Assembly: GCF_000024205.1 (NCBI RefSeq)
Contig: NC_013216.1
Location: 682,001 to 746,000 of the forward strand
DNA from: Desulfofarcimen acetoxidans DSM 771
GTDB lineage: Bacteria; Bacillota; Desulfotomaculia; Desulfotomaculales; Desulfofarciminaceae
Length of the DNA stretch: 64,000 bases
Direction of reading: 5' to 3'
The position numbers and the translations under genes were made by a program. The notes under the pieces were generated by a model. The model did not search any database. It was not told where the DNA came from and saw only the letters and a list, made by a program, of their open reading frames with translations. Positions within the stretch are counted from its first letter, which is position 1. The number at the start of each line of letters is the position of its first letter. Shown in pieces: positions 14,026-21,016 of the stretch.

Positions 14026-14174
14026 TGAGGATTGCGACTGATTATATTTCGCCACATTATGGAGAATTGGGCAACCATTATATTGTTAAATCTATCCGGT
14101 AGGAAAAACAACAATAGTCATAGAAATACACAGACATTGTGGTAAAATATATACAAAGAAGGTGATCAAAGACA

Positions 14175-15094
14175 ATGCCCAAAATAGACTTGCCAATCAA
14201 ACGCTTGTTGCAGCAAAGACCTGCCGACTGGGTCAAGTACATCCTCCCCCTGACTGTCGGGAGGAATGGATCAAGCCCTATTGCACGGAATTTGTACCAA
14301 AACAAGAATCCCGGCTGGATAAAGTCATAGAGGTAGATGACCCCAGGGGAACGTACTTAATCAATTTTGAGCCTATGGGGTACTACGACATAAAATTGCC
14401 GGCTCGGATGCTGCGCTACCGGGGGGACATTTGGGAATATACCCTGTCTAAAGGCAAAGGAATCCCACCCATAAAGCAAATAGTCATATTTTTCTATTCC
14501 GAGCATGACAGCAAAAACCATCTCTTGACAGATTACTGGGGAGAATCAACTATGTTAAGGTATACCTATCGGGTTATCCATGTCTGGGAAGAGTCAAGGC
14601 AACAGGTAATAGACAAAGAATTGGTCGGACTTTATCCCCTGTTACCTCTGATGAAAGGAGAAAAAGGGGATGAAAAGTCAGAAGAGGTCCTTCAGCAAAG
14701 CATATCTATCATACAGAAAGTGAAAGACATATCCTTGCAACAGGATCTATTGGCCACAATGGCCGTATTGGTATCTCACAAGTACCCAGCAGCTCTTGTA
14801 TTGTCAATGATAGGGAGGGAAATGATTATGGAATCACCGGTTTACCAAGAATGGGTGAAGGAGGCTGAAGCTAAGGGTAGGATTGAAGGCAAGGCTGAAG
14901 GAAAGGCTGAAGCTATATGCAAGCTCTTAAGCAAAAGATTTGGCCTCAAATCCTTAATTATGCAGGATAAAGTTAATAGTATAACAAATAAAACGGTTTT
15001 GGATTGGATATTTGATGAAATCATCGACATTACAGACCTAAAAGTTGCTCAAAATATTATAGATGATGCAATTAAGCAGATAATGCAACAATGA
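14175..15094 (+). pseudogene. Rpn-family protein (type B), frameshifted copy
   Basis: Near-identical to the intact gene at 15660-16589. The ATG at 14175 with AGAAGGTGA upstream matches the intact start, but a run of five C at 14246-14250 (three in the other copy) adds two bases and shifts the frame after about 25 codons. An alternative GTG at 14162 reads through in the downstream frame with an unrelated N-terminus, but has no proper ribosome site. The downstream ~285 codons are open and match the intact copy, with one fewer EGRA-type repeat. Either a real frameshift or a sequencing error at the C run. Confidence 0.75.
14828..15094 (+). CDS. Intragenic C-terminal ORF of Rpn type B
   Basis: An 88-residue ORF, MESPVYQEWVKEAEAKG onward, in frame with the larger gene. 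GGAGGG lies eight bases before the ATG (14828). It covers the GKAEGKAE repeats and the C-terminal helical domain. In this copy the upstream nuclease part is frameshifted, so this may be the only product. Inferred by analogy to E. coli RpnS. Confidence 0.45.
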   Translation: MESPVYQEWVKEAEAKGRIEGKAEGKAEAICKLLSKRFGLKSLIMQDKVNSITNKTVLDWIFDEIIDITDLKVAQNIIDDAIKQIMQQ

Positions 15095-15134
15095 TCGGAA
15101 ATGTTCGGGTCGATTTTAGGAAGAAAGCATAGAG

Positions 15135-15170
15135 ATTGGAAGTAATAAAAAGACGTTATTTCCAATTTCT
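15135..15170. terminator. Hairpin between convergent ORFs
   Basis: An 11-bp stem (ATTGGAAGTAA with TTATTTCCAAT, one G-T pair) around TAAAAAGACG, followed by TTCTTTCT. It separates the Rpn gene from the opposing MazE-like ORF; copy b is at 16629. Confidence 0.55.
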
Positions 15171-15275
15171 TTCTAGGGTCTGTCCCCTATAAAAAAATGG
15201 TAATAGAATTATTATGTCCAAGGCTGAGTTCCTAACTGAACACTAGTCCACATGCGCCGGATTTTTTGCCTGGTG

Positions 15276-15440
15276 TTATATCTGGGGAAATAACCAACGC
15301 TGGTTAGTGTCCTCCGACTTGCCGCTATCTGCTTCCTTATAAATATTTTCGGTCTTAGCTTTGGACAATAAATCTTCCGGGCTATATTTTTTTCGTCGGA
15401 TAATAAGAGTATCATTTCCAGCTTGGTAAGGTTGTGCCAT
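15276..15440 (-). pseudogene. Truncated MazE/AbrB-like antitoxin, copy 1
   Basis: A 54-residue ORF, MAQPYQAGNDTLIIRRKKYS onward. The stretch from LIIRR through the EDLL, TENIYKEADSGKSED and final W block resembles the C-terminal half of MazE-type antitoxins (strand, then YTLEDLL, then a HGEVDTG-like toxin-binding tail). The DNA-binding AbrB half is absent. This could be a fragment or a mini-antitoxin; no adjacent MazF was found. Confidence 0.55.
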
Positions 15441-15659
15441 CGTTAACACCTTTAAAATTTTTGACTTCTCATGCTTCTTTATCCACCCATAGCTATGACA
15501 ATATTGTATTTGAGGATTGTGACTGATTATATTTTGCCACATTATGGAGAATTGGGCAACCATTATATTGTTGAATCTATCCGGTAGGAAAAACAACAAT
15601 AGTCATAGAAATGCACAGACATTGTGGTAAAATATATACAAAGAAGGTGATCAAAGACA

Positions 15660-16589
15660 ATGCCCAAAATAGACTTGCTAATCAAACGCTTGTTGCAGCA
15701 AAGACCTGCCGACTGGGTCAAGTACATCCTCCCTGACTGTCAGGAAGAATGGATCAAGCCCTATTGCACGGAATTTGTACCAAAACAAGAATCCCGACTG
15801 GATAAAGTCATAGAGGTAGATGACCCCAGGGGAACGTACTTAATCAATTTTGAGCCTATGGGGTACTACGACATAAAATTGCCGGCTCGGATGCTGCGCT
15901 ACCGGGGGGACATTTGGGAATATACCCTGTCTAAAGGCAAAGGAATCCCACCTATAAAGCAAATAGTCATATTTTTCTATTCCGAGCATGACAGCAAAAA
16001 CCATCTCTTGACAGATTACTGGGGAGAATCAACTATGTTAAGGTATACCTATCGGGTTATCCATGTCTGGGAAGAGTCAAGGCAACAGGTAATAGACAAA
16101 GAATTGGTCGGACTTTATCCCCTGTTACCTCTGATGAAAGGAGAAAAAGGGGATGAAAAGTCAGAAGAGGTTCTTCAGCAAAGCATATCTATCATACAGA
16201 AAGTGAAAGACATATCCTTGCAACAGGATCTATTGGCCACGATGGCCGTATTGGTATCTCACAAGTACCCAGCAGCTCTTGTATTGTCAATGATAGGGAG
16301 GGAAATGATTATGGAATCACCGGTTTACCAAGAATGGGTGAAGGAGGCTGAAGCTAAGGGTAGGATTGAAGGCAAGGCTGAAGGTAGAGCTGAAGGCAAG
16401 GCTGAAGCTATATGCAAGCTCTTAAGTAAAAGATTTGGCCTCAAATCCTTAATTATGCAGGATAAAGTTAATAGTATAACAAATAAAACGGTTTTGGATT
16501 GGATATTTGATGAAATCATCGACATTACAGACCTAAAAGTTGCTCAAAATATTATAGATGATGCAATTAAGCAGATAATGCAACAATGA
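15660..16589 (+). CDS. Rpn-family protein, type B (309 aa)
   Basis: Resembles the Rpn/YhgA-like PD-(D/E)XK nuclease proteins often annotated as putative transposases. Residues 1-120 carry the nuclease-like fold (LDKVIEVDDPRG; LPARMLRYRGDIWEYTL), but the expected Glu-x-Gln motif reads N63-F-E65-P, so catalysis is doubtful. A helical linker follows, then GRIEGKAEGRAEGKAE repeats and a C-terminal helical domain (ICKLLSKRFGL). Start at 15660 with AGAAGGTGA upstream. A strong internal ribosome site precedes M218. E. coli Rpn proteins are DNA nucleases linked to recombination and phage defence; the role here is inferred. Confidence 0.75.
   Translation: MPKIDLLIKRLLQQRPADWVKYILPDCQEEWIKPYCTEFVPKQESRLDKVIEVDDPRGTYLINFEPMGYYDIKLPARMLRYRGDIWEYTLSKGKGIPPIKQIVIFFYSEHDSKNHLLTDYWGESTMLRYTYRVIHVWEESRQQVIDKELVGLYPLLPLMKGEKGDEKSEEVLQQSISIIQKVKDISLQQDLLATMAVLVSHKYPAALVLSMIGREMIMESPVYQEWVKEAEAKGRIEGKAEGRAEGKAEAICKLLSKRFGLKSLIMQDKVNSITNKTVLDWIFDEIIDITDLKVAQNIIDDAIKQIMQQ
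16311..16589 (+). CDS. Intragenic C-terminal ORF of Rpn type B, copy b
   Basis: A 92-residue in-frame ORF from M218 of the larger protein. GGAGGG is eight bases before the ATG at 16311. It contains three KAEG/RAEG repeat units and the C-terminal domain, the layout expected for an RpnS-type intragenic antitoxin. Confidence 0.5.
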   Translation: MESPVYQEWVKEAEAKGRIEGKAEGRAEGKAEAICKLLSKRFGLKSLIMQDKVNSITNKTVLDWIFDEIIDITDLKVAQNIIDDAIKQIMQQ

Positions 16590-16628
16590 TCGGAAATGTT
16601 CGGGTCAATTTCAGGAAGTGCTCGAATA

Positions 16629-16670
16629 GAAATTGGAAATAATAAAAAGACGTTATTTCCAATTTCTTCT
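16629..16670. terminator. Hairpin between convergent ORFs, copy b
   Basis: A perfect 14-bp stem GAAATTGGAAATAA/TTATTTCCAATTTC around TAAAAAGACG, followed by TTCTC. Probably a bidirectional terminator. Confidence 0.6.
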
Positions 16671-16727
16671 CAGGATCTGGCCCCCATAAAAAAATGGTAA
16701 TAAATTACTATGTCCAAGGCTGAGTTC

Positions 16728-16940
16728 CTAACTGAACACTAGTCCACATGCGCCGGATTTTTTGCCTGGTGTTATATGATTCTGGGGAAATAACCAACGC
16801 TGGTTAGTGTCCTCCGACTTGCCGCTATCTGCTTCCTTATAAATATTTTCGGTCTTAGCTTGGGACAATAAATCTTCCAGGCTATATTCTTTTCGTCGGA
16901 TAATAAGAGTATCATTTCCGGCTTGGTAAGGTTGTGCCAT
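16728..16940 (-). pseudogene. Truncated MazE/AbrB-like antitoxin, copy 2
   Basis: Second copy of the MazE C-terminal-like ORF (MAQPYQAGNDTLIIRRKEYS). A three-base insertion near 16778 removes the stop seen in copy 1, so the frame runs 70 residues. It lies 68 bases downstream of the type A Rpn gene on the same strand. Confidence 0.5.
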
Positions 16941-17008
16941 CGTTAACACCTTTAAAATTTTTGACTTCTCATGCTTCTTTATCCACCCATAGCTATGGCA
17001 ATATTGTA

Positions 17009-17206
17009 TTAATGAATTTTCTTCTTAAGTGATAATACCTCTTCTTTAGAAAGATTGGTGATTTTGACAATAGTTTCAACATCAAAACCTTCCCTCAAGG
17101 CTGCAATAGCGGTTTTTTCTAAACCTTCTCTTAAACCTTCCTTTAAACCTTCCTTTAAACCTTCCTCTCGGCCTTCTTCACGGATCCACTGTTCTATTTG
17201 AGTCAT
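17009..17206 (-). CDS. Intragenic C-terminal ORF of Rpn type A, copy 1
   Basis: A 65-residue in-frame ORF from M231 (MTQIEQWIREEGREEG). GGAGGTG (17219-17213) lies six bases before the ATG, an almost ideal Shine-Dalgarno inside a coding region. It spans the KEGL repeats and the C-terminal domain. Proposed RpnS-type antitoxin by analogy. Confidence 0.5.
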   Translation of the reverse strand: MTQIEQWIREEGREEGLKEGLKEGLREGLEKTAIAALREGFDVETIVKITNLSKEEVLSLKKKIH

Positions 17207-17896
17207 GCGCAGCACCTCCAGAAGTCTTTTTTTATATTCTTCAGTCAAAAAATTATCACTTACAGCTACAATTGCCCCAATTGTAAAGGCTCTGATAGGT
17301 TCATTAGGTATTTCCTTAGCCAGTTCTGCTGCCTGGATAGCCATTTCATCCTCTGATTTTTCTTTGCTTTTCATTAAAGGCAGAAAGATTAGTCTTTGAA
17401 TATCTACCTCATCCAGGGGTTTCTTGTTTTTAATTTTTTCATAAATTCGTTTATATTCAGCATCACCGTCAAATTTTTTCATGTAAATATTTTTTACTTT
17501 ATAAGTGAGAGAGCCTTTTCTTAGCAATCTCGGTGCAGATTCTATCTTGCCAGAATAAATGACTACTGTATTTACATCTTGGTCATACTTTTCCACCAGT
17601 CTTGATCCATATGTGACCATTCGTATTAGTATGTCTTTGGGTATGGTGGTTTGGAATTCTAAGTGCAGGATACTGTTATCTTTTAGTAGGAAAACGAAGT
17701 CTATTCTTTTTTCTTTTACTTCTACTACAGGTAAAACTGTAGGCATAACTGAAACTATACGAGCGGTTTTAAGGCCAATTGCTGACAGCGTTTTATCAGT
17801 AAACAGTTGTGAAACTGCCTTCATGATAACATCGTTATTTTGACGTGTAATTACTAAGGCTGCATCGTTGCTTTCTTCTGCCAATTTATAATTCAC
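17009..17896 (-). CDS. Rpn-family nuclease, type A, copy 1 (295 aa)
   Basis: A PD-(D/E)XK nuclease-fold protein of the Rpn family. Residues 50-90 hold the active-site pattern: D66 in KRIDFVFLLKD, then E80-F-Q82 in ILHLEFQTT, followed by the conserved RMVTYGSRLVEKYDQDVNTVVIYSG. A helical middle (PLMKSKEKSEDEMAIQ) leads to charged repeats (EEGLKEGLKEGLREG) and a short C-terminal helix-turn-helix-like tail (VETIVKITNLSKEEVLSLKK). The catalytic residues are intact, unlike type B. AGAAGGTGA precedes the ATG. An internal ribosome site precedes M231. Probably DNA cleavage in recombination or phage defence, by family. Confidence 0.82.
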   Translation of the reverse strand: MNYKLAEESNDAALVITRQNNDVIMKAVSQLFTDKTLSAIGLKTARIVSVMPTVLPVVEVKEKRIDFVFLLKDNSILHLEFQTTIPKDILIRMVTYGSRLVEKYDQDVNTVVIYSGKIESAPRLLRKGSLTYKVKNIYMKKFDGDAEYKRIYEKIKNKKPLDEVDIQRLIFLPLMKSKEKSEDEMAIQAAELAKEIPNEPIRAFTIGAIVAVSDNFLTEEYKKRLLEVLRMTQIEQWIREEGREEGLKEGLKEGLREGLEKTAIAALREGFDVETIVKITNLSKEEVLSLKKKIH

Positions 17897-18038
17897 CTTC
17901 TATTTAATCTCATTAAATTCATTTTATCATAGTTACAGTTTGATTGTCAGTCAGCAATAAAAAATATCTGTGCGGATCGATTTGTGGATAATGAAATTTT
18001 AGGGGTAATACATGAGGCTTTAATTTTTATGATAAAAA

Positions 18039-18071
18039 CCACCTGAATAGCTAAATTTCAGGTGGTTTTTT
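18039..18071. terminator. Bidirectional terminator upstream of Rpn A copy 1
   Basis: A perfect 9-bp stem CCACCTGAA/TTCAGGTGG, preceded by an A run and followed by TTTTTT, so it can work in both directions. It is repeated at 20207. Confidence 0.75.
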
Positions 18072-18212
18072 GTTAGCACCTACGATATACTTAAAACATT
18101 ATGAGTGCGGTAGAATGTTTGTAAAAAACAACGAGATAATTTGTTATTCATAAAAATTAGACGTTGGTTTTTGATAATTTTCCATATCCCAAAGCAGGGA
18201 TATTAGTCCTTT

Positions 18213-18425
18213 TTGTCAAATATTATAGCAAGGGATAACATTTACCTATTTAAGTGGCTAAACTTTTTTTTATTACCATAATTTATTTATAAAAATATAA
18301 TAAAGTGCCTTGATAATGCAATTATTTATGCCATTGGCTTCTAAAGTGCAATTTAAGATTAGAGCAGTCCGGTGGCCAAATCAGGTATTTCTACCCTCTT
18401 TGGTCGACCGGTAGGGTAGTTTTTT
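18213..18425 (+). promoter_or_regulatory. Duplicated flgB-type promoter and leader
   Basis: A copy of the flgB control region. Promoter-like TTGTCA (18213) and TAACAT (18236) are 17 bases apart. The leader element is identical to that before flgB: stem CCGGT-GG-CCAAA (18369-18380) with TTTGG-TCG-ACCGG (18400-18411), and CTACCCT (18391-18397) with AGGGTAG (18413-18419) followed by six T. Downstream there is no flgB but a 60-codon ORF, so this is a displaced copy made by the R2 duplication. Confidence 0.65.
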
Positions 18426-18432
18426 GTTTAGG

Positions 18433-18606
18433 ATGTGTATTTGTGTTATGGAATCTATTTTACTGTTCCTATTTAGTATAGGATTTATGATGACATTTTT
18501 TGCTTCTCTTTATTACATAGTAAGTAAGGACAAATATAAATGGCTAATATTGAGTTTTATAAGTGGCATTTTCTTAGCTTTGCTTATTCCGTTTATAGCA
18601 ATGTGA
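18433..18606 (+). CDS. Possible small membrane protein
   Basis: A 57-residue ORF from ATG 18433 (or 49 residues from ATG 18448, MESILLFLFSIGFMMTFF). Two hydrophobic segments separated by VSKDKYKW suggest two membrane helices. TAGGA precedes it closely. I recognise no family. It sits where flgB would be behind the duplicated leader and lies in the unique segment between the two R2 copies. It may be a chance ORF. Confidence 0.4.
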   Translation: MCICVMESILLFLFSIGFMMTFFASLYYIVSKDKYKWLILSFISGIFLALLIPFIAM

Positions 18607-18913
18607 ATGCTAAAATAAAGTGTACCCAAAACGCTAATGAAAAGTGTGCCATTAAAATAAGTCATTATCTATAAAAATTACTATGTCCAAGGCTAAGTTC
18701 CCAACTGAACACTAATTCATTACATCCATAGATGTGAGTTAGTGCATTGGGAGATGCTGTCGCTCAGTCAGATACATCAATTAGCAATAAATAAAAATGA
18801 GCAATATTCATTTAGTGAATTGCTCATCATATATGTTCCGGGTATCCACTCACTATATAATTCCGGCAGAGAACACCACACGCGCCGGATTTTTTGCCTG
18901 GTGTTATATGATT
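18607..18913. other. Unique/rearranged spacer between R2 copies
   Basis: No gene is seen. It contains two similar 10-mers (AAAGTGTACC at 18618 and AAAGTGTGCC about 20 bases on), the left end of R2 copy b at 18675, a ~155-base piece (about 18718-18873) absent from the other two MazE-like segments, and an imperfect inverted repeat (ATGAGCAAT...TTCA / TGAATTGCTCAT) near 18797-18827. Confidence 0.5.
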
Positions 18914-19072
18914 CTAGGGAAATAACCAACGCTGGGTAGTGTCCTCCAGCTTGCCGCTATCTGCTTCCTTATAAATATTTTCGGTCTTAACTTGGCACAA
19001 TAAATCTTCCAGGCTATATTCTTTTCGTCGGATAATAAGAGGATCATTTTCGGCTTGATAAGGTTGTGCCAT
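18914..19072 (-). pseudogene. Truncated MazE/AbrB-like antitoxin, copy 3
   Basis: A 52-residue ORF, MAQPYQAENDPLIIRRKEYS onward, ending TTQRWLFP. It is the most diverged of the three copies, yet the frame stays open and the toxin-binding-like pattern (EDLL, ENIYKEADSG, W) is kept. It follows Rpn A copy 2 on the same strand. Confidence 0.5.
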
Positions 19073-19140
19073 CCTTAACATCTTCAAAATTTTTGACTTC
19101 TCAGTCTTCTTTATCCACCCATAGCTACGGCAATATTGTA

Positions 19141-19374
19141 TTAATGAATTTTCTTCTTAAGTGATAATATCTCTTCTTTGGAAAGATTGGTAATTTTGAC
19201 AATAGTTTCAATATCAAAACCTTCTCGCAAGGCTGCAATGGCAGTTTTTTCTAAACCTTCTCTTAAACCTTCCTTTAAGCCTTCCTTTAAACCTTCCTCT
19301 CGACCTTCTTTTAAACCTTCTTTTAAACCTTCCTCTCGGCCTTCTTCACGGATCCACTGTTCTATTTGAGTCAT
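19141..19374 (-). CDS. Intragenic C-terminal ORF of Rpn type A, copy 2
   Basis: A 77-residue in-frame ORF from M231 with GGAGGTG six bases upstream, as in copy 1. It carries the longest repeat tract of the three type A loci. Confidence 0.5.
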   Translation of the reverse strand: MTQIEQWIREEGREEGLKEGLKEGREEGLKEGLKEGLREGLEKTAIAALREGFDIETIVKITNLSKEEILSLKKKIH

Positions 19375-20064
19375 GCGCAGCACCTCCAGAAGTCTTTTTT
19401 TATATTCTTCAGTCAAAAAATTATCACTTATAGCTACAATTGCTCCGATTGTAAAGGCTCTGATAGGTTCATTAGGTATTTCCTTGGCCAGTTCTGCTGC
19501 CTGGATAGCCATTTCATCCTCTGATTTTTCTTTGCTTTTCATTAAAGGCAGAAAGATTAGTCTTTGAATATCTATCTCATCCAGGGGTTTCTTGTTTTTG
19601 ATTTTTTCATAAATTCGTTTATACTCAGCATCACCGTCGAATTTTTTCATGTAAATATTTTTTACTTTATAAGTGAGAGAGCCTTTTCTTAGCAATCTCG
19701 GTGCAGATTCTATCTTGCCAGAATAAATGACTACCGTATTTACATCTTGGTCATACTTTTCCACCAGTCTTGATCCATATGTGACCATTCGTATTAGTAT
19801 GTCTTTGGGTATGGTGGTTTGGAATTCTAAGTGCAGGATACTGTTATCTTTTAGTAGGAAAACGAAGTCTATTCTTTTTTCTTTTACTTCTACTACAGGT
19901 AAAACTGTAGGCATAACTGAAACTATACGAGCGGTTTTGAGGCCAATTGCTGACAGCGTTTTATCAGTAAACAGTTGTGAAACTGCCTTCATGATAACAT
20001 CGTTATTTTGCCGTGTAATTACTAAGGCTGCATCGTTGCTTTCTTCTGCCAATTTATAATTCAC
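19141..20064 (-). CDS. Rpn-family nuclease, type A, copy 2 (307 aa)
   Basis: Nearly identical to the gene at 17009-17896, with the same D66/E80/Q82 active-site pattern. The difference is 12 extra residues in the charged repeat tract (additional EGREEGLKEGLK units) plus a few conservative changes (V to I). AGAAGGTGA precedes the ATG. The internal start M231 is conserved. It is divergent from flgB with ~550 bases between. Confidence 0.82.
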   Translation of the reverse strand: MNYKLAEESNDAALVITRQNNDVIMKAVSQLFTDKTLSAIGLKTARIVSVMPTVLPVVEVKEKRIDFVFLLKDNSILHLEFQTTIPKDILIRMVTYGSRLVEKYDQDVNTVVIYSGKIESAPRLLRKGSLTYKVKNIYMKKFDGDAEYKRIYEKIKNKKPLDEIDIQRLIFLPLMKSKEKSEDEMAIQAAELAKEIPNEPIRAFTIGAIVAISDNFLTEEYKKRLLEVLRMTQIEQWIREEGREEGLKEGLKEGREEGLKEGLKEGLREGLEKTAIAALREGFDIETIVKITNLSKEEILSLKKKIH

Positions 20065-20206
20065 CTTCTATTTAATCTCATTAAGTTCATTTTATCATAG
20101 TTACAGTTTGATTGTCAGTCAGCAATAAAAAATATCTGTACGGATCGATTTGTGGATAATGAAATTTTAGGAGTAATAAATGAGGCTTTAATTTTTATGA
20201 TAAAAA

Positions 20207-20239
20207 CCACCTGAATAGCTAAATTTCAGGTGGTTTTTT
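20207..20239. terminator. Bidirectional terminator, copy b
   Basis: Same CCACCTGAA/TTCAGGTGG stem as at 18039, followed by TTTTTT. It lies upstream of the flgB promoter. Confidence 0.75.
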
Positions 20240-20380
20240 GTTAGTACCTACGATATACTTAAAACATTATGAGTGCAGTAGAGTGTTTGTAAAAAACAAC
20301 GAGATAATTTGTTATTCGCAAAAATTAGACACTGGTTTTTGATAATTTTCCATATCCCAAAGCAGGGATATTAGTCCTTT

Positions 20381-20409
20381 TTGTCAAATATTATAGCAAG
20401 GGATAACAT
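20381..20409 (+). promoter_or_regulatory. Candidate promoter of flgB operon
   Basis: TTGTCA (20381-20386), 17 bases, TAACAT (20404-20409): a plausible housekeeping-sigma promoter. A second, weaker SigD-like match lies downstream: TAAA at 20458, 15 bases, CTTGATAA at 20477-20484 (five of eight). Either would give a 100-200 base leader before flgB. Confidence 0.5.
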
Positions 20410-20536
20410 TTACCTATTTAAGTGGCTAAACCTTTTTTTATTACCATAATTTATTTATAAAAATATAATAAAGTGCCTTGATAATGCAATTATTTATGCC
20501 ATTGGCTTCTAAAGTGCAATTTAAGATTAGAGCAGT

Positions 20537-20597
20537 CCGGTGGCCAAATCAGGTATTTCTACCCTCTTTGGTCGACCGGTAGGGTAGTTTTTTGTTT
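20537..20597 (+). promoter_or_regulatory. flgB leader: pseudoknot or terminator switch
   Basis: Stem 1 pairs CCGGT-GG-CCAAA (20537-20548) with TTTGG-TCG-ACCGG (20567-20579). Stem 2 pairs CTACCCT (20559-20565), in the loop of stem 1, with AGGGTAG (20581-20587), followed by TTTTTTG. Stem 2 alone is a classic intrinsic terminator just before flgB; both together make an H-type pseudoknot. This suggests transcription attenuation of the flagellar operon. I could not match it to a known riboswitch class. Confidence 0.6.
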
Positions 20598-20611
20598 AGG
20601 AGTGATTACCT

Positions 20612-21016
20612 TTGGATCTTTTTAATAACAAATCTTTAAGACTGCTGGAAAAAGCTATTGATGCCGGGTCTTTAAGGCAGCGTGTTATCGCTAATAATAT
20701 TGCTAATATAAATACTCCAGGGTTTAAAAAATCTTCTGTGGCTTTTGAGTCTATTTTAAAAAAGAATTTGAACACGGGCAGGATTCCTCTGAAATATTCG
20801 GACAGCAGGCATTTTGGCGCTGCTGACTCGCTTGACGCCATCAATCCGACAGTAGTCAAAGAGAATACTACGTCAATGAGGTCAGACGGGAATAATGTGG
20901 ATGTTGAACAGGAAATGGTCAGGTTGGTGCTAAATACAATTAATTATAATGCTGATATTCAGGAATTGAACAATCGCTTGAATTCACTGGGAGTTGTTAT
21001 TAGGGGGGGTAATTAA
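20612..21016 (+). CDS. flgB: Flagellar rod protein FlgB
   Basis: Proximal rod subunit. The 134-residue protein has the rod signature RVIANNIANINTPGFKKSSV near the N-terminus and a C-terminal helical part (VDVEQEMVRLVLNTINYNADIQEL). The TTG start at 20612 follows TTTAGGAGTG. It is the first gene of an operon that runs without a clear break to fliY. flgC starts two bases after its stop. Confidence 0.95.
   Translation: MDLFNNKSLRLLEKAIDAGSLRQRVIANNIANINTPGFKKSSVAFESILKKNLNTGRIPLKYSDSRHFGAADSLDAINPTVVKENTTSMRSDGNNVDVEQEMVRLVLNTINYNADIQELNNRLNSLGVVIRGGN

What the first reader, a model, noticed from the sequence alone, without database searches (positions are those of the whole stretch)
20537..20597. 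flgB leader forms a pseudoknot or a terminator: candidate new flagellar RNA switch
Stem 1 (20537-20548 with 20567-20579) and stem 2 (20559-20565 with 20581-20587) are interlocked. Stem 2 plus six T is a terminator directly before the flgB ribosome site, so the whole flagellar operon would be attenuated unless it is disrupted or held in the pseudoknot. The element is identical in the copy at 18369-18425. It does not match the c-di-GMP, preQ1, fluoride or ykkC consensus patterns I know.
Basis: partly seen in the sequence, partly recalled or inferred. Interest (0 to 1): 0.66.

Follow-up and report, generated by a model that had tools for sequence, protein, structure and literature searches.

The report
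Eroded riboswitch before the flagellar operon
The RNA leader in front of this bacterium's flagellum genes can fold either into a stop signal or into a go-ahead hairpin, and it looks like a worn-down version of a known c-di-GMP-sensing switch found at the same place in many relatives, rather than a brand-new kind of switch.

Summary
Both stems are at the stated coordinates and exceed chance: 0 of 600 shuffles gave a terminator and a competing hairpin as strong. An interlocked pseudoknot is not credible: one unpaired base would have to span 12 bp. The stems read better as alternatives, stem 1 antiterminator, stem 2 terminator. The copy at 18369 lies in a duplication and adds no evidence. The finding misses a third hairpin upstream (20498-20544) that uses stem 1's 5' arm and would free the terminator; the two whole-leader states lie about 1-2 kcal/mol apart. 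In the order, 33 of 88 usable flgB leaders have a class-I c-di-GMP riboswitch upstream of flgB. The upstream hairpin resembles the P3 arm and 3' end of that aptamer, and the one held family relative scores weakly as one over full length. But the conserved 5' half is unrecognisable in the window, Rfam finds nothing, and several tests were negative. Best reading: a flgB attenuator descended from a c-di-GMP-I riboswitch, strongly diverged, perhaps ligand-blind. A new riboswitch class is possible but less likely.

The parts
20364..20388 (+). promoter-like motif AGGGAT-N-TGTCAAA (SigH-like by recall), possible start signal of the flgB transcript
   Evidence: same motif in the G034 leader, 16 bases TTTTGTCAAATATTAT identical; loose forms upstream of flgB in 36 of 90 leaders scanned. 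The sigma-factor name is recalled, not tested.
20450..20551 (+). region aligned full length to the flgB c-di-GMP-I model R1; putative strongly diverged aptamer
   Evidence: 3.4 bits, E=0.14 for 251 bases, not significant alone; the family relative has 10.7 bits, E=0.0029 for 251 bases at the homologous place
20498..20544 (+). P3-like hairpin GCCATTGGC..TTCTAA / TTAGAG..GTCCGGTGGC; competes with stem 1 for its 5' arm
   Evidence: -15.8 kcal/mol, z -2.4, 5 of 200 shuffles; 5' arm like the aptamer P3 arm (74 of 2000 shuffles, first of 55 leaders without the riboswitch); 3' arm like the aptamer 3' end (23 of 3000 shuffles)
20537..20579 (+). stem 1: antiterminator hairpin (20537-20548 with 20567-20579)
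   Evidence: -20.2 kcal/mol, z -3.0; joint test with stem 2, 0 of 600 shuffles
20559..20593 (+). stem 2: intrinsic terminator CTACCCT..AGGGTAG plus six T
   Evidence: -12.7 kcal/mol; a T-run terminator at the homologous place in G034
20598..20602 (+). flgB ribosome-binding site AGGAG
   Evidence: read from sequence; TTTTAGGAGTGG at the same place in the relative
20612..21016 (+). flgB (TTG start), first gene of the flagellar operon
   Evidence: Pfam Flg_bb_rod 6.4e-9; flgC follows with Flg_bb_rod and Flg_bbr_C
18272..18433 (+). duplicate of the leader, in front of an orphan 60-aa ORF
   Evidence: 100% identical over 162 bases; part of the 16744-18441 / 18876-20607 duplication

Best explanation
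The flgB leader is a transcription attenuator with three hairpins in series, of which neighbours exclude each other: an upstream P3-like hairpin (20498-20544), an antiterminator (stem 1, 20537-20579) and an intrinsic terminator (stem 2, 20559-20593). If the upstream hairpin holds the shared strand 20537-20544, stem 1 cannot form, the terminator folds and transcription stops before flgB. If stem 1 forms, it traps the terminator's 5' arm and RNA polymerase reads into the operon. The upstream hairpin is most likely the surviving 3' half of a class-I c-di-GMP riboswitch, the OFF-type flgB switch that many relatives keep at this place. Here the ligand-binding half has eroded or changed beyond recognition, so c-di-GMP sensing may be lost, weakened or altered. 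Shown: the pairings and their excess over chance, homology of the leader with its one held family relative, riboswitches at this position in other families. Inferred: attenuation in the cell, direction of the switch, riboswitch ancestry, loss of ligand binding.
For: Stems exact and beyond chance. Terminator-plus-P3 state against stem-1 state: -34.9 / -33.9 kcal/mol for 20470-20597, -34.9 / -36.1 for 20450-20597, -42.2 / -44.4 for 20392-20597, -43.0 / -44.4 for 20392-20605: near balance. W and G034 leaders align far above shuffles (83 against 33.2, sd 5.8, 0 of 2000; without the ribosome site 2 of 2000; core alone 0 of 2000), and G034 also has a T-run terminator there. Class-I riboswitches upstream of flgB in 33 of 88 usable leaders, 13 of the 33 having built the model. 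On the FlgB tree the rows nearest by path to W and G034, after each other, are L087, L088, L103, L095, all four with the riboswitch. R1 on G034: 10.7 bits, E=0.0029 in 251 bases; the best hit below the real riboswitches in 148,674 bases of 89 loci with default filters (E=1.7 there). The 20-nt aptamer 3'-end matrix has its best site in both leaders at the place R1 gave (W 23 of 3000 shuffles, G034 52 of 3000). W's P3 5' arm ranks first of 55 leaders without the riboswitch (74 of 2000 shuffles). C. difficile Cd1 is an OFF class-I riboswitch in the flgB 5' UTR (PMC6366702, PMC3649979; passages).
Against: No Rfam c-di-GMP-I match in the window, up to E=10 in 20380-20640, or up to E=10 in the G034 leader. 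R1 on the window is not significant alone (3.4 bits, E=0.14), and an antisense hit there is higher (4.3 bits). Without filters one of 51 loci lacking the riboswitch gives a higher R1 hit (L170, 17.2 bits, strand opposite to flgB). Two leaders without the riboswitch pass W in the 3'-end matrix (L105 12.2, L161 7.1 against W 5.9, G034 7.6). Alignment to the whole aptamer consensus is not significant (W 193 of 2000, rank 13 of 55; G034 557 of 2000, rank 22), nor is G034's P3 5' arm (1358 of 2000). A core matrix also hits G034 (2 of 2000 shuffles) in another register, about 40 nt downstream, which cannot be true together with R1's; the window is at chance there (p 0.67). The conserved 5' half is not seen in W. 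In G034 the terminator state is lower by 11 kcal/mol, so the balance is not conserved. The tree's weak fork (78) groups W and G034 with rows without the riboswitch. With two leaders, covariation cannot prove any stem.
Confidence: 0.52

Rival explanations
1. A distinct switch unrelated to c-di-GMP-I: the upstream hairpin is its own aptamer or sensor, and the terminator/antiterminator pair is its platform.
For: Near-balanced three-hairpin layout; no Rfam riboswitch match; aptamer core of c-di-GMP-I not recognisable in W.
Against: No wider family seen: the W+G034 sequence model is convincing only in these two of 113 genomes (best other E 0.004 per genome); the region upstream differs much between W and G034; c-di-GMP-I-like arms at this place.
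Confidence: 0.13
2. Attenuator without a ligand or with a protein regulator: the leader sets a fixed or protein-controlled fraction of read-through into the flagellar operon.
For: Terminator kept in both genomes while the upstream sequence is fluid; in a fold starting at 20530, stem 1 forms as soon as it is complete.
Against: No protein-binding motif was tested here; near balance of the two states suggests a regulated rather than fixed choice.
Confidence: 0.2
3. Plain terminator left before flgB, with stem 1 incidental, and flgB transcribed by read-through or from another start.
For: Stem 2 has 7 pairs and a 15-nt loop; starts are uncertain (a TATAAT with a 4-of-6 first hexamer at 20441-20469, in a scan with 15 sites against 12.4 expected); G034 stem 1 is weak.
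Against: The gene upstream runs on the other strand, so no upstream + strand operon is seen that needs stopping; 0 of 600 shuffles match both hairpins.
Confidence: 0.12
4. Interlocked H-type pseudoknot.
For: The four arms do follow each other in the order of a pseudoknot.
Against: One nucleotide (20580) would have to cross the 12-bp stem 1; most of stem 1 would have to open.
Confidence: 0.03

Closest known systems
Class-I c-di-GMP riboswitch (GEMM, RF01051) of flgB leaders, such as Cd1 / Cdi1_3 of Clostridioides difficile and those of order members such as L085, L095, L101
   Same: place upstream of flgB, transcription terminator before flgB, aptamer-like 3' end overlapping the antiterminator strand, P3-like arm and 3' end resemblance
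   Different: no GGGCAAAC core, no GNRA loop and no Rfam match in the window; ligand binding unknown
Hairpin-series attenuators of amino-acid operons (trp, his leaders; recalled)
   Same: works like 1:2, 2:3, 3:4 alternative pairing
   Different: a leader peptide with regulatory codons was not looked for; the gene is flagellar; only sub-threshold His_leader matches in the G034 stretch, E 3.1 and 8.1
H-type pseudoknot riboswitches (preQ1, SAM-II; recalled)
   Same: order of arms on paper
   Different: crossing loop too short for a real pseudoknot; no Rfam match

Membership tests
c-di-GMP-I riboswitch RF01051 | score at or above the Rfam gathering score | tested here: not met
   no match in the window, none up to E=10 in 20380-20640; the genome's 4 matches lie elsewhere
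c-di-GMP-I riboswitch RF01051 | conserved GGGCAAAC / CGCAAAGC core (G20, A47) and a GNRA tetraloop on P2 (GYRA in type II) | tested here: not met
   R1's alignment puts UAAUAAAG, AUUUAU and UGAUAA at these places in W; roles of A47, G20, C92 from PMC9049102 (which calls G20 and C92 less conserved than A47) and of the tetraloops from PMC11218506 (passages)
c-di-GMP-I riboswitch RF01051 | P3 arm and 3' end (GCCACGGGCCUAA..UAAGGCAGCCGGGUUGC) | tested here: inconclusive
   W 3' end 23 of 3000 shuffles, 5' arm 74 of 2000, pairing z -2.4; but whole consensus 193 of 2000
c-di-GMP-I riboswitch RF01051 | binds c-di-GMP | not testable with these tools
   needs in-line probing or calorimetry
intrinsic transcription attenuator | terminator hairpin with U-tract and a competing antiterminator that traps one of its arms | tested here: met
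   (computed structures only)
intrinsic transcription attenuator | both alternatives kept in a relative by compensatory change | tested here: inconclusive
   G034 keeps the terminator; its stem-1 pairing is weaker (-11.1 kcal/mol) and in another register
H-type pseudoknot | loops long enough to cross the helices | tested here: not met
   20580 alone would cross 12 bp (coordinates)

The most novel reading that the evidence does not exclude
The leader is a descendant of the c-di-GMP-I riboswitch whose binding core has been rebuilt, so that the flagellar operon of this family now answers to a different signal through the inherited terminator/antiterminator.
Probability: 0.12. Interest if true: 0.65.

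Novelty: new variant of a known kind. Interest (0 to 1): 0.36.

Why it matters
If right, it is a visible case of a riboswitch wearing away at a fixed place in the genome: relatives range from intact aptamers (33 of 88 usable leaders) through this half-recognisable form to leaders where none was found. It would let one ask whether an attenuator outlives its sensor, and whether motility in this family has been released from direct c-di-GMP control although the genome keeps four c-di-GMP-I riboswitches elsewhere.

Tried and rejected
Rfam at gathering on the whole window, at E up to 10 on 20380-20640 and on the G034 leader stretch: no c-di-GMP-I or other riboswitch. DNA search of the family with 20440-20612: the two copies, and short AT-rich matches. 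Sequence-only model R2 of W+G034 in 113 genomes of the order: best other hits E 0.004 and 0.0096 per genome, about what 113 searches give by chance; L189 and L190 were not looked at further. The idea that GGTGGCAAAGTCACGGATCTACC of G034 is the aptamer core (matrix) was set behind the full-length R1 alignment; the two exclude each other and both are reported. Identity of the duplicated leader as a sign of selection: 12 differences in 20040-20432 against 0 in 20433-20600, too few to tell from chance or conversion. The 60-aa ORF behind copy 1: 52 residues searched in 113 genomes, best match outside the own genome E 0.003 with a stop inside; no Pfam family. The coarse terminator scan of leaders (16 of 33 riboswitch leaders, 8 of 55 others) used fixed lengths and missed the window's own terminator, so it is not used as evidence. 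FlgB tree: 133 columns for 90 rows, 36 of 87 inner branches open; used only for nearest rows.

Rows dropped: of 95 genomes with a FlgB match, leaders of 90 were taken (not G008, G044, G051, G106, G110); L152 (13 bases upstream) and L167 (mostly N) were dropped, leaving 88. R1 hits in L093 and L096 lie downstream of flgB and are not among the 33. In L151, L169, L171, L180 and L181 at least, the promoter-like motif lies between the riboswitch and flgB, so there the riboswitch may not belong to the flgB transcript.

Mended on the second reading: coordinates and call of the duplicate leader; distance between the two registers in G034 (about 40 nt, not 70); further negative results (ranks, L105 and L161, the weak fork).

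Full report
What is there. The window lies in a 4,545,624-bp single-contig genome; from memory that length is that of Desulfofarcimen (Desulfotomaculum) acetoxidans, which no call verified. FlgB starts at 20612 with TTG after AGGAG, followed by flgC (Pfam) and, by the look of the translations (recalled names), fliE, fliF, fliG and further flagellar genes. The long ORF before flgB is on the other strand (19141-20064).

Stem 1 is CCGGTGGCCAAA (20537-20548) with TTTGGTCGACCGG (20567-20579), one bulge. Stem 2 is CTACCCT (20559-20565) with AGGGTAG (20581-20587), then six T. Each is more stable than most shuffles (z -3.0, 0 of 200; z -2.0, 7 of 200). A joint test on 20450-20587 gave 1 of 600 shuffles with a terminal hairpin as stable as stem 2, and 0 of 600 with that and a competing hairpin as stable as stem 1. 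So the layout is not chance. It is, however, an either/or layout: position 20580 alone would have to cross the 12-bp stem 1 if both formed, so a pseudoknot is not credible (geometry, recalled knowledge of H-type pseudoknots).

The copy at 18369-18425 is no independent witness. It belongs to a 1.7-kb duplication, 16744-18441 / 18876-20607, at 95.1% identity; 162 bases of the leader are identical. From 20433 to 20600 there is no difference, while 20040-20432 has 12, too little to tell selection from chance or conversion. Copy 1 stands before an orphan 60-aa ORF without Pfam family or clear relatives.

The missing third hairpin. Upstream, 20498-20544 folds as GCCATTGGC..TTCTAA / TTAGAG..GTCCGGTGGC (-15.8 kcal/mol, z -2.4, 5 of 200 shuffles). 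It uses 20537-20544, the start of stem 1. So there are two states: upstream hairpin plus terminator, or antiterminator. For 20470-20597 the first has -34.9 and the second -33.9 kcal/mol; for 20450-20597 -34.9 and -36.1; for 20392-20597 -42.2 and -44.4; for 20392-20605 -43.0 and -44.4. The stem-1 state is thus slightly lower in three of the four stretches. This near balance is what a regulated attenuator would show, but it is a computed energy, not a measurement. The longer stretch 20470-20551 as a whole does not fold better than shuffles (z -0.1).

Start of the transcript. AGGGAT..TGTCAAA at 20364-20388 matches a motif in the G034 leader, with TTTTGTCAAATATTAT identical, and loose forms of it stand upstream of flgB in 36 of 90 leaders. 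It looks to me like a SigH-type promoter (recalled). A sigma-70-like site with TATAAT is at 20441-20469, in a scan that found 15 sites where 12.4 are expected. Either would put stem 1 and stem 2 in the transcript; only 5' mapping can settle it.

Relatives. Of 113 genomes of the order 95 have a FlgB match; leaders of 90 were taken and 88 were usable. Reading them showed c-di-GMP-I riboswitches in many (the second output was cut). A covariance model R1 from 13 of them finds such riboswitches at 44 bits or more upstream of flgB in 33 of the 88, the 13 included. RF01051 matches somewhere in 97 of 113 genomes, in the own genome at four places, none at flgB. In C. difficile the class-I riboswitch Cd1 / Cdi1_3 in the flgB 5' UTR stops transcription when c-di-GMP is high, and a terminated transcript of about 160 nt was seen (PMC6366702, PMC3649979; passages). 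PMC6366702 also says that non-functional riboswitches of that species are less well conserved.

The other genome held of the same family, G034, has a homologous leader (score 83 against 33.2, sd 5.8, 0 of 2000 shuffles; without the ribosome site 2 of 2000; the core alone 0 of 2000), with a terminator at the same place. There the terminator state is lower by 11 kcal/mol than the stem-1 state (-35.8 against -24.7), and stem 1 is weaker and in a shifted register. So the terminator is conserved, the antiterminator only loosely, and covariation cannot be shown with two sequences.

Is the upstream part a worn c-di-GMP-I aptamer? For: R1 aligns full length to G034 with 10.7 bits, E=0.0029 for the 251 bases, the best hit under the real riboswitches in 148,674 bases of 89 loci with default filters (E=1.7 there). 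Without filters, 51 loci lacking the riboswitch (70,353 bases) gave one higher hit (L170, 17.2 bits, on the strand opposite to flgB) and 17 lower ones up to E=10. R1 puts the window's homologous place at 3.4 bits, E=0.14. A matrix of the aptamer's last 20 bases, from 26 leaders, has its best site in both leaders at the place R1 gave: W 20525-20544 (23 of 3000 shuffles) and G034 (52 of 3000). The aptamer's P3 5' arm finds GCCATTGGCTTCTAAAG at 20498-20514, first of the 55 leaders without the riboswitch (74 of 2000 shuffles). These two arms are the ones that pair in the upstream hairpin. On the FlgB tree the rows nearest by path to W and G034, after each other, are L087, L088, L103 and L095, all with the riboswitch; in the 14-row group that holds these, 6 (L094, L098, L100, L102, L106, L111) have none.

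Against: Rfam sees nothing of the kind. Alignment to the whole consensus is not significant (W 193 of 2000, rank 13 of 55; G034 557 of 2000, rank 22), nor is the P3 5' arm in G034 (1358 of 2000). In the 3'-end matrix two leaders without the riboswitch, L105 (12.2) and L161 (7.1), pass W (5.9), and L105 passes G034 (7.6). In the window R1's antisense hit is higher than its sense hit (4.3 against 3.4 bits). A different register in G034, about 40 nt downstream, also looks like the aptamer core (2 of 2000 shuffles); both cannot be right, and the window is at chance there. The GGGCAAAC / CGCAAAGC core and the tetraloop, whose roles are described in PMC9049102 and PMC11218506 (passages), are not recognisable in the window. 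The tree's own fork puts W and G034, with weak support (78), beside rows without the riboswitch. So I do not file it as a member of RF01051. I hold descent from it to be somewhat more likely than not, and ligand binding to be open.

How it most likely works. Transcript from about 20392 (inferred). If the upstream hairpin keeps 20537-20544, the terminator at 20559-20593 stops transcription; if that strand is released, stem 1 forms and flgB and the operon behind it are read. In a live class-I OFF riboswitch c-di-GMP would favour the first state. Here the sensor half seems eroded, so the choice may be fixed, set by something else, or answer to a changed ligand.

Verdict. A non-random, computed attenuator before the flagellar operon; pseudoknot not supported; duplication not evidence; 'new switch' better read as a strongly diverged form of a known switch at its usual place. 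Searches for prior description listed, by title and start of abstract, nothing on this leader; only open-licence papers are held, and one search showed 12 of 32.

Noticed in passing
14026-20607: Array of long direct duplications: 14026-15510 / 15511-17010 (96.5%) and 16744-18441 / 18876-20607 (95.1%), holding repeated genes with EEGLKEGL-type tails (look like Rpn/PD-(D/E)XK transposase relatives by recall; the two proteins scanned have no Pfam family over its cut-off).
   Followed up: partly
18424-18606: Orphan 60-aa membrane-protein-like ORF directly behind the duplicated flgB leader; the leader and its terminator may now act on it.
   Followed up: partly
20202-20240 and 18034-18072: Inverted repeat ACCACCTGAA..TTTCAGGTGGT followed by T6, in both copies, between the divergent gene and the flgB promoter-like motif; could insulate flgB from upstream transcription (seen in sequence).
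   Followed up: no
L098 (leader on minus strand): By eye another eroded c-di-GMP-I-like leader before flgB (GGGCAGG..CAAGAAATTGG..ATGCAAAG), close to riboswitch-bearing L085/L086 on the FlgB tree; aligns to the whole consensus at 22.0, third to fourth of 55.
   Followed up: no
L170:224-318 (-): Model R1 hit of 17.2 bits on the strand opposite to flgB, in a locus without a recognised riboswitch upstream of flgB.
   Followed up: no
flgB leaders of the order: Promoter-like motif upstream of flgB, AGG(A/G)A-N-TG(T/C)(C/T)(G/A)AA or AAGGATAA-N-TGTAGAAT forms, in 36 of 90 leaders, SigH-like by recall.
   Followed up: partly
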